From Okeanomitos corallinicola TIOX110 (GTDB lineage: Bacteria; Cyanobacteriota; Cyanobacteriia; Cyanobacteriales; Nostocaceae), in the NCBI RefSeq assembly GCF_038050375.1, contig NZ_CP150886.1, positions 3,885,318 to 3,949,317 of the forward strand: a stretch of DNA of 64,000 bases, in the 5' to 3' direction. Each line of letters opens with the position of its first letter. Position 1 is the first letter of the stretch. Both the position numbers and the translations under genes were made by a program. Under the pieces are notes generated by a model that had not been told where the DNA came from, searched no databases, and saw nothing but the letters and a program-made list of their open reading frames with translations. Of the stretch, positions 20,804-63,530 are shown piece after piece.

Positions 20804-21178
20804 TATGTAGTGGAAGTTGTCTATGAAAAAGAGGAAACAGATTATGGTTTAGACCCTAATTCCATAGCAGCGATTGATTTAGGAATAGATAATCTAGCAA
20901 CTTTAACATCAAACCAGCCGGGATTTATACCAGTTCTGGTTTCCGGGCGGATTATCAAATCAATTAATCGTTATTACAATCAAAGAAAAGCCAATTTACA
21001 ATCTTTACTACCTGCACATCAAAAGACCTCTAAACGACTACAAAGTTTAACTAAAAAAAAGTAGTCCCGACAGCATTTAGTCTAGGGATAGAGGGCGTTG
21101 TAGTCCGAGAAAGTCGGGGTTATTCCCGGCAAACGAAAGGCATAAGATATTTGTCTATGTTTTTTGGAACTATTAGAA
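20804..21178 (+). pseudogene. Doubly deleted tnpB remnant (IS200/IS605 superfamily)
   Basis: The sequence is nearly identical to parts of the complete tnpB at 61997-63235. It starts at the codon for about residue 165 and runs to residue 249. It then jumps over about 406 bp, at a run of A residues shared by both breakpoints, to codon 385, and continues through the 3' end and right-end sequence. The deletion shifts the frame, so only a peptide of about 84 residues remains (20810-21064). The last 120 bp, matching 63147-63268, are well preserved. Confidence 0.88.
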
Positions 21179-61637: not shown

Positions 61638-61996
61638 TTGTTTTTCTGGATATTAAGTTTGTCTACTTTTGAAAAGTTATTCCCTATTTAAAAATCTCAC
61701 GCAAAACCGCAAAGATACAAAGTCAGAAAGGAAGAGAATGATTAGGTGTGATCTAATTCCATGAAAACTACTTTGAATATACAACAATTTATGAGACGTA
61801 TTTTCATAGTATTGGTAAAATTCGCCGAATTTATAGACAAATATAGTCATCTCTAGTCATTAATCACACAGAAGTCAGCTAAAATCACTTATACAGCTTT
61901 TCTTGTGCAAAGGGAACTGAGCAAGAATTTTGTGCATTATCAGATCTAAGATATGTTAGTATATATGGGCGAATATTCATAGAAACTAGCTAGTGT
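61638..61996. other. Intergenic region upstream of tnpB
   Basis: A 359-bp gap. Its last part should contain the transposon left end, but no second copy exists here to define it. No gene is visible. Confidence 0.45.
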
Positions 61997-63235
61997 ATGC
62001 AAGTAGTCGAGCGGCATATCATTCAAAGAAATCATCCCCATTATCAGGAGATTGATAAATTATGTTTTGCTGCCAAAAACCTCTACAATTATGCTAACTT
62101 TCACATTCGCCAAAGTTTCATCTTTGCTCAAAAATATCTTGACTACAATTGTTTAGCAAAACAATTAAAAGGGACAGAACCATACCAGGCCTTACCAGCC
62201 AAAGTAGCCCAACAAGTATTATTAGGACTACATCGCAACTGGTTAAGTTTTTTTGCAGCAATTAAAGCTTATGCAGAAGATAAATCCAAATTTTTAGGTA
62301 GACCCAAATTACCTAAATATAAACACAAAGAAAAAGGTAGACATTTATTAGTTTATACAGCCCAAGCAGTGAGTAAACCCAAAATGAAATCTGGGTTGAT
62401 TCATCTGTCACAAACACAGATTCACATTCCTACAAAAGTAGATTATTGTTATCTAAATCAAGTAAGAATTGTCCCCAAGATTGACCATTATGTAGTAGAA
62501 GTTGTCTATGAAAAAGAGGAAACAGATTATGGTTTAGACAGTAATGCTATAGCAGCGATTGATTTAGGCATAGATAATCTAGCAACCTTAACATCAAACC
62601 AGCCGGGATTTACACCAGTTCTGGTTTCCGGGCGGATTATCAAATCAATTAATCGTTATTATAATCAAAGAAAAGCCAATTTACAATCTTTACTACCTGC
62701 ACATCAAAAGACCTCTAAACGATTACAAAGTTTAACTAAAAAACGGAATTTTCGAGTAGATGATTATCTGCATAAAGCCAGTCGCTTAATTATTAACCAT
62801 TTAGTCAAGTGTGGGATTGGGACTTTAGTAATAGGTCAAAATTCCTTGTGGAAACAGAATGGGAATTTGGGCAGTAGAAATAATCAAAACTTTGTTTGTA
62901 TTCCCCATACTCGATTTGTACAGCAGTTGAGTTATAAAGCGAAATTAGTGGGGATAAATGTATTGGTTTCTGAGGAGTCTTACACTTCTGTAGCTTCTTT
63001 TTTAGACCAAGATGTGATTCCTACTTATGGCAAAGTTGACTCGAAAGAAGTTAAATTTAGTGGTCGCAGAATCAAAAGTAAACTTTATAGAGCAGGTAAT
63101 GGTTTATTCATTCATGCTGATGTCAATGGTAGTTTGAATATTTTACGAAAAGTAGTCCCGACAGCTTTTAGTCTAGGGATAGGGGGCGTTGTAGTTCGCC
63201 CCGTCGGGGTTATTCCCGGCCAACGAAAGGCATGA
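61997..63235 (+). CDS. tnpB: TnpB-type RNA-guided endonuclease (IS200/IS605 OrfB), zinc-ribbon-less type
   Basis: The 412-residue protein is complete. RuvC-I is AAIDLGIDN (Asp189) and RuvC-III is FIHADVNGSLN (Asp375). At the position where most TnpBs have a VxxEDL glutamate it reads LVIGQNSLWKQ (277-287); Glu326/Glu327 in VSEESYTSVASFLD are the alternative acids. There are no Cys between 302 and 412, so the usual CxxC zinc ribbon is absent. No tnpA lies nearby, so it is a solo (IS1341-type) element. The 3' end and right end also occur at 21055-21178 in a remnant. It probably processes and uses a right-end-derived guide RNA. Confidence 0.92.
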   Translation: MQVVERHIIQRNHPHYQEIDKLCFAAKNLYNYANFHIRQSFIFAQKYLDYNCLAKQLKGTEPYQALPAKVAQQVLLGLHRNWLSFFAAIKAYAEDKSKFLGRPKLPKYKHKEKGRHLLVYTAQAVSKPKMKSGLIHLSQTQIHIPTKVDYCYLNQVRIVPKIDHYVVEVVYEKEETDYGLDSNAIAAIDLGIDNLATLTSNQPGFTPVLVSGRIIKSINRYYNQRKANLQSLLPAHQKTSKRLQSLTKKRNFRVDDYLHKASRLIINHLVKCGIGTLVIGQNSLWKQNGNLGSRNNQNFVCIPHTRFVQQLSYKAKLVGINVLVSEESYTSVASFLDQDVIPTYGKVDSKEVKFSGRRIKSKLYRAGNGLFIHADVNGSLNILRKVVPTAFSLGIGGVVVRPVGVIPGQRKA

Positions 63236-63268
63236 GATATTTGTCTATGTTTTTTGGAACTATAGAAC
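63147..63268 (+). ncRNA. Candidate omega-RNA/right-end region of the TnpB element
   Basis: The last 85 bp of tnpB and about 33 bp after it match the remnant at 21055-21178. The conserved part includes GACAG(C/A)TTTTAGTCTAGG, CCCGTCGGGG-type stems and TTGTCTATGTTTTTTGGAAC. In TnpB elements the guide RNA overlaps the gene's 3' end and the right end, which is the basis of this call. Confidence 0.45.
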
Positions 63269-63283
63269 CCATTTGGGATCTAT

Positions 63284-63530
63284 CTAACCAGTGGCTAGTC
63301 TTTTAAGCATGAGGCGCGCCAAACAAAGATTAATCTTGGTGGTGGCATGATCCAAAGTGCGCTCAAAATTTTTGACTAGACTTTTACAGCGTTCCATCCA
63401 AGAGTTGGTTCTTTCTATGACCCATCTGGCTTTAACTAGCACAAAGCCTGTTTTTCCCTCTTTCTACTTTTGAGTTTTTGAAGGTTTTGGTGATAACTGG
63501 AACTTAATCTTGGTCATAATAGCCGGATCA
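63284..63530 (-). pseudogene. IS5 family transposase remnant
   Basis: The minus strand reads GFVLVKARWVIERTNSWMER followed by CKSLVKNFERTLDHATTKIN and ends LARLMLKRLATG and stop at 63284. This is the C-terminal end of an IS5-type transposase. An in-frame stop near 63465 and a shift separate it from the preceding VDPAIMTKIKFQLSPKPSKT. The rest of the gene is missing. It directly adjoins the right end of the TnpB element. Confidence 0.75.

What the first reader, a model, noticed from the sequence alone, without database searches (positions are those of the whole stretch)
61997..63235. TnpB without zinc ribbon and without the canonical RuvC-II glutamate
Asp189 and Asp375 are intact, but the VxxEDL position reads LVIGQNS and no cysteines occur in the C-terminal 110 residues. 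Glu326/327 just before YTS could replace the missing acid. Rearranged catalytic sites are, as I recall, reported for some TnpB and Fanzor clades, so this may be an active but unusual RNA-guided nuclease.
Basis: partly seen in the sequence, partly recalled or inferred. Interest (0 to 1): 0.58.

Follow-up and report, generated by a model that had tools for sequence, protein, structure and literature searches.

The report
Zinc-free TnpB with relocated catalytic glutamate
A cyanobacterial jumping gene carries an RNA-guided DNA-cutting enzyme that has lost its zinc-binding part and has one of its three catalytic residues at a place already known from eukaryotic Fanzor enzymes, so it looks intact rather than broken.

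Summary
ORF 61997-63235 is a TnpB with Asp189 and Asp375 intact, Gly280 where canonical TnpB has its RuvC-II Glu, and no Cys after residue 301. It lies in an IS element, 61809-63263, with 13 near-full copies in this genome and no tnpA inside. The rearranged site is known: Glu327 is the 'alternative Glu' (Ealt) of some TnpBs and of Fanzors (PMC10711439), and one RuvC-II-rearranged TnpB was active in vitro (PMC10278001). Asp189, Gly280, Glu327 and Asp375 are invariant in 29 of 29 relatives; Glu326 is not. Selection is purifying (dN/dS about 0.2). The right-end RNA keeps a covarying hairpin whose loop can pair with the element's 3' end, the pseudoknot of TnpB guide RNAs. A resident IS607-type element with an open serine-recombinase gene shares both ends, so transposition in trans is likely. 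What stands out is the missing zinc ribbon: all 40 zinc-free Ealt rows form one clade (SH-aLRT 100). I found no description of that loss in the papers searched, but the main classification paper was not held. Most likely a probably active Ealt TnpB; cleavage is untested.

The parts
61809..63263 (+). whole IS element (1455 bp), tnpB only, no tnpA inside
   Evidence: ends of similarity of the own-genome copies
61809..61860 (+). left end GTATTGGTAAA..TTTATAGACAAATAT, shared with a resident IS607-type element
   Evidence: 16 own-genome matches with up to 3 mismatches; similar start in L049
61997..63235 (+). tnpB ORF, 412 aa, Ealt type without zinc ribbon
62561..62563 (+). codon of Asp189 (RuvC-I, IDLG)
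   Evidence: invariant in A2, 29 of 29 rows
62834..62836 (+). codon of Gly280, the place of the canonical RuvC-II Glu
   Evidence: invariant Gly in A2
62975..62977 (+). codon of Glu327, the alternative RuvC-II Glu
   Evidence: invariant in A1 and A2
62996..63118 (+). residues 334-374, zinc-free segment in place of the C4 ribbon
   Evidence: alignment with zinc-bearing TnpBs; no four-Cys pattern in the clade
63119..63121 (+). codon of Asp375 (RuvC-III, HADVN)
   Evidence: invariant in A1 and A2
63184..63201 (+). right-end RNA hairpin 1: stem 63184-63188/63197-63201, loop with GTAGTT at 63191-63196
   Evidence: two pairs with changes on both sides
63203..63220 (+). right-end RNA hairpin 2 (GTCGGGG/TCCCGGC)
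   Evidence: minimum-energy fold; not kept in the L013 group
63258..63263 (+). AACTAT, last six bases of the element, able to pair with loop 63191-63196 (pseudoknot)
63236..63263 (+). right end, identical in 22 places of the genome
63264..63283 (+). first 20 bases of the right flank: inferred guide stretch of this copy
   Evidence: inference from known TnpB guide RNAs and the mapped right boundary

Best explanation
This is a TnpB of the alternative-glutamate (Ealt, RuvC-II-rearranged) class that has also lost its zinc ribbon. It is encoded by a 1455-bp tnpB-only derivative of an IS607-type element. The transcript's right end folds into a guide RNA scaffold (hairpins plus a pseudoknot between a loop and the 3' end), followed by a guide copied from the flanking DNA. 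The protein binds it and, with Asp189, Glu327 and Asp375 as the RuvC triad, cuts DNA that matches the guide, typically the empty donor site, so that the element is kept after excision. Movement is done in trans by an IS607 TnpA (serine recombinase) such as the resident one. Shown here: sequence features, conservation, clade, purifying selection, element ends, RNA covariation, ends shared with the IS607 element. Inferred: guide-RNA production, cleavage, trans mobilisation, Glu327 in the metal site.
For: TnpB profiles pass curated cut-offs (NF040570 175.5 bits against 100; PF01385 72.7 against 30.5; PF07282 33.6 against 26.3). Asp189, Gly280, Glu327 and Asp375 invariant in 29 of 29 rows of A2. 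Mean dN/dS 0.21 over the 78 pairs of 13 own copies; 0.14-0.20 against eight relatives, one of them (L013) with saturated dS. The model (mean pLDDT 85.5) matches AsCas12f (Z 20.9), ISDra2 TnpB (Z 20.0) and mimivirus Fanzor2 (Z 16.9) over residues 1-389 or 1-390. 40 zinc-free Ealt rows form one clade, beside zinc-bearing Ealt rows (89), in a tree built without residues 273-372. Hairpin covariation; loop/3'-end pairing in a closed hairpin in 6 of 8 elements tested, against 0.5-1.6% of shuffles. 22 identical right ends. Both ends shared with the IS607-type element at L049, whose TnpA ORF is open.
Against: Model confidence is under 50 at residues 293-297 and 329-336, next to Glu327, and atomic distances were not available. 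The pseudoknot pairing is incomplete in L087 and L088. Within A3 five of its six pairs never vary, and the sixth is broken in 4 of 14 rows without a compensating change, so only the more distant elements speak for it. One relative, L082, has lost Glu326, Glu327 and Asp375, so some members decay. The empty site and core dinucleotide could not be read. No expression or cleavage data.
Confidence: 0.82

Rival explanations
1. A nuclease-dead TnpB kept as an RNA-guided DNA binder or repressor (like TldR, recalled, or Cas12m).
For: The canonical Glu and the zinc ribbon are absent.
Against: Glu327 is invariant together with Asp189 and Asp375 in 29 of 29 rows; the Ealt position is catalytic in Fanzors (PMC10432273, PMC11423790, passages); the gene sits in a repeated mobile element at different genomic places, not in one fixed gene neighbourhood.
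Confidence: 0.1
2. A decaying, non-functional passenger ORF in a non-autonomous IS.
For: Truncated and internally deleted copies exist (L031, L033-L036, L038, L041), as does the decayed L082.
Against: 13 near-full ORFs are open, differing in structure mainly by an in-frame insert and a stop a few codons earlier; dN/dS about 0.2.
Confidence: 0.06
3. A different acidic residue (Glu326, Asp337 or Asp339) is the third catalytic acid.
For: Glu326 is 90% or more conserved; Glu326, Asp337 and Asp339 are invariant in A1.
Against: Of these only Glu327 is invariant in both alignments, and only it has the published Ealt spacing.
Confidence: 0.1

Closest known systems
Ealt TnpBs with D-hydrophobic-G at RuvC-I (PMC10711439); RuvC-II-rearranged clades RII-r3 and RII-r5 (PMC10278001)
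   Same: DLG at RuvC-I, no canonical Glu, Glu at the alternative place, IS607 link
   Different: zinc-bearing members have a C4 ribbon after YTSK; here it is absent. Which RII-r clade this falls in could not be settled.
Fanzor2 and pro-Fanzors
   Same: alternative Glu; IS607-type element; fold match to mimivirus Fanzor2
   Different: they carry DPG and a zinc finger; the window has DLG and no zinc finger, and the Fanzor-like zinc-bearing Ealt rows branch apart
ISDra2 TnpB and AsCas12f1
   Same: overall fold, RuvC-I and RuvC-III Asp, guide RNA
   Different: canonical Glu and zinc ribbon present there
IS607 family; tnpB-only IS1341-like elements
   Same: ends shared with a resident IS607-type element
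   Different: no tnpA in this copy

Membership tests
TnpB (NCBIfam NF040570, Pfam PF01385/PF07282) | score above curated cut-off | tested here: met
TnpB, classical motif of PMC3627910 | D-X(125,275)-[TS]-[TS]-XX-[C4 zinc finger]-X(5,50)-RD | tested here: not met
   Asp189 and T330-S331 fit; no C4, and AD375 in place of RD
canonical (Ecan) TnpB | RuvC-II Glu in VxxEDL | tested here: not met
   Gly280, invariant in A2
Ealt TnpB | Glu six residues before the first zinc position | tested here: met
   Glu327 to Ser334, which aligns with the first Cys of zinc-bearing rows
Ealt TnpB as searched in PMC10711439 | CxxC..CxxC after the Glu | tested here: not met
   no Cys after 301
Fanzor / pro-Fanzor | DPG at RuvC-I with Ealt | tested here: not met
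   window has DLG
IS607 element | own serine recombinase tnpA | tested here: not met
   no such ORF in 61809-63263
IS607 element | ends recognised by an IS607 TnpA | tested here: inconclusive
   ends match those of an IS607-type element with an open TnpA ORF; binding not tested
RNA-guided TnpB nuclease | right-end RNA with hairpin and pseudoknot | tested here: met
   predicted only:
RNA-guided TnpB nuclease | guided DNA cleavage | not testable with these tools
   no bench data
TldR-like dead TnpB (definition recalled) | loss of RuvC acids | tested here: not met
   three acids invariant in A2

The most novel reading that the evidence does not exclude
A large, old clade of RNA-guided nucleases dispenses with zinc altogether: the lobe that loads the target strand is held by a zinc-free ribbon (invariant Ser334, Gly356, Arg358, near-invariant Asp337) beside a relocated Glu, and this pair of changes gives a nuclease with its own cut pattern or little collateral single-strand cutting.
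Probability: 0.25. Interest if true: 0.55.

Novelty: new variant of a known kind. Interest (0 to 1): 0.36.

Why it matters
It shows that the zinc ribbon, part of the classical TnpB motif and of the published pattern search for Ealt proteins, is dispensable in a widespread lineage, so such searches would miss it. The clade offers compact (about 410 aa), zinc-free candidates for nuclease and editing studies, and its place beside zinc-bearing Ealt TnpBs lets the order of events (Glu moved first, zinc lost later) be tested.

Tried and rejected
Empty donor site and IS607 core dinucleotide: flanks of L026 and L030 were found in relatives, but the junctions were too diverged to read. The window's right flank recurs over its first 41 bases at one other place, preceded there by CTAT, which does not decide it. 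The left flank of a plasmid copy in Dolichospermum gave no readable empty site. At 16 own-genome left junctions the base before GTATTG (or its counterpart) is A in 12, G in 3, T in 1 (counted by eye); I saw no consistent target duplication. Rfam gave nothing at gathering scores. Three Y1 (HUH) transposase matches are in the genome; I did not test a link to this element. Zinc loss in print: ten paper searches listed no paper that I saw describing it; not every listed paper was opened. Altae-Tran et al. 2023 (recalled) was not held, and supplements could not be read. Active-site distances: the model's coordinates were not in the script box. SpuFz1 is only rank 50 in Foldseek's list. The tree is a quick one without bootstrap; 28 of 56 zinc-bearing NAD rows were used, and several long branches are flagged. 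Papers: PMC10711439 abstract, passages and sections 25, 26, 28; PMC10432273, PMC10278001, PMC11423790, PMC3627910, PMC9956272 and PMC6426976 passages only; all others as search listings.

Full report
WHAT IS THERE. It passes curated cut-offs for TnpB (NF040570) and for the Pfam families PF01385 and PF07282. Asp189 and Asp375 are present, residue 280 in LVIGQNS is Gly where AsCas12f1 has its MEDL stretch, and no Cys follows residue 301.

THE ELEMENT. Comparison with 12 further near-full copies in the same genome (96-97% identity) puts the element at 61809-63263. There is no tnpA ORF in it. The 28-base right end occurs 22 times in the genome, each time without a mismatch although up to three were allowed; the left end occurs 16 times with up to 3 mismatches. 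Internally deleted copies of 237, 392 and 448 bp keep both ends. The genome also has an IS607-type element (L032/L049) with an open serine-recombinase ORF beside a broken, 59% identical zinc-free tnpB. Its left end (GTATTGGTAAA..TTTATAGACA) and right end (ATTTGTCTAT..ACTAT) resemble those of the window element. Homologues of that TnpA lie just upstream of zinc-free tnpB genes in L013, L084, L086, L089, L091, L092 and L131 as well (loci differ in the flank held, so a miss says little). Mobilisation of the window element in trans by this TnpA is therefore likely, but inferred.

THE CATALYTIC SITE. In A2 (29 rows; the 28 others are 30-92% identical to the window) Asp189, Gly280, Glu327 and Asp375 are invariant; Glu326 is only near-invariant. 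In A1 (29 rows, some of them fragments) Glu326, Glu327 and Asp375 are invariant. The clear exception among the rows is L082 (74% identical), in which Glu326, Glu327 and Asp375 are all changed, as expected of a decayed copy. Yoon et al. (PMC10711439) define the alternative Glu as lying six residues before the zinc motif; Glu327 lies six residues before Ser334, which aligns with the first zinc Cys of zinc-bearing Ealt proteins. Fanzor structures use this Glu: E541 with D383 and D606 at the metal site of SpuFz1 (PMC10432273, passages), and the Glu is described on the loop after the fifth beta strand, the second Asp on the helix (PMC11423790, passage). The AlphaFold2 model (mean pLDDT 85.5, pTM 0.69; under 50 at 293-297 and 329-336) has strand 274-280 ending at Gly280, strand 321-325 just before Glu327, and Asp375 on helix 374-386. 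It matches Cas12f, TnpB and Fanzor2 structures. The topology fits; the distances were not measured. Nety et al. (PMC10278001, passages) name clades with RuvC-II rearrangement and report one RII-r5 member active in a dsDNA cleavage screen, so a rearranged site can be active.

SELECTION. Between the 13 near-full own copies the mean dS is 0.094 and the mean dN 0.020 (ratio 0.21, 78 pairs); against eight relatives the ratios are 0.14-0.20, with dS saturated for L013. The protein is being maintained.

NO ZINC RIBBON. The segment after YTS reads, in most members, SFLDxD..SGxR..LY..G..NAD. Of 28 viral-contig loci with a DNA pattern for that motif, 20 gave a readable ORF, and none had more than two Cys in the following 75 residues. 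The same is seen in Ktedonobacter (L009) and on plasmids of Anoxybacillus and Methanohalobium (L283, L284). By contrast, 16 different Ealt rows with a C4 ribbon were kept from a second pattern search. In a tree of 88 rows built without residues 273-372, all 40 zinc-free rows form one clade (SH-aLRT 100); their nearest neighbours are seven zinc-bearing Ealt rows (89), while eight zinc-bearing Ealt rows of a Fanzor-like group, six of them DPG, lie elsewhere. The simplest reading is one loss of zinc after the Glu had moved. The rooting is weak and the tree is a quick one.

GUIDE RNA. The last 120 bases fold better than all 200 shuffles (z -3.75). Hairpin 1 (GGGCG/CGCCC) becomes GGGGA/TCCCC in the L013 group: two pairs are changed on both sides and all its cells are paired. 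Its loop GTAGTT can pair with the last six bases AACTAT. In A3 five of these six pairs never vary and the sixth is broken in 4 of 14 rows, so A3 alone is no test. More distant elements have GCAGTT/AACTGT (L266), GTAGCT/AGCTAT (L267) and GCAGTG/TACTGT (L009), which are changes on both sides; of 8 elements tested, 6 have the pairing in a closed hairpin, against 0.5-1.6% of shuffled sequences, and L087 and L088 do not. A pseudoknot of this kind is required for the IS607 TnpB of ISXfa1 (PMC10711439, section 26). The stretch after 63263 is the inferred guide.

VERDICT. An Ealt TnpB, probably active, in a tnpB-only IS607 derivative. The moved glutamate is known. The zinc-free clade is, as far as ten paper searches show, not described in the papers I saw, but the classification paper most likely to mention it was not held. 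NCBI already names such proteins 'RNA-guided endonuclease TnpB family protein', so the clade is catalogued even if its lack of zinc is not discussed.

Noticed in passing
window 20804-21173: A second, truncated and internally deleted copy of the same element; its right end (21146-21173) is identical to that of the main copy. One arm of its hairpin 1 differs.
   Followed up: partly
L041, L035, L036: Internally deleted miniature copies of 237, 392 and 448 bp that keep both ends.
   Followed up: partly
L082: 74% identical relative with a 469-aa open frame in which Glu326/327 read KK and Asp375 reads Asn: a decayed or nuclease-dead member.
   Followed up: no
L177 and L286: TnpBs with the alternative Glu (NEYKTS, SERDTS), a zinc ribbon and an NAD-type RuvC-III: possible intermediates.
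   Followed up: no
L100, L104, L132, L135: Zinc-free Ealt proteins that carry DPG at RuvC-I, the motif called a Fanzor fingerprint, without a zinc finger.
   Followed up: no
L027-L030 and L011; L011, L031, L033, L035, L041: In-frame inserts inside tnpB copies: an eight-residue one (NTSTKLSV or near it) and a block near the 3' end (EEPLRWAGFPTCSKWRG), perhaps small nested repeats.
   Followed up: no
window 63264-63304: The first 41 bases of the right flank recur (90%) at one other genome place, there preceded by CTAT.
   Followed up: partly
own genome, L052-L058: Several canonical zinc-bearing TnpBs live in the same genome as the zinc-free family.
   Followed up: no
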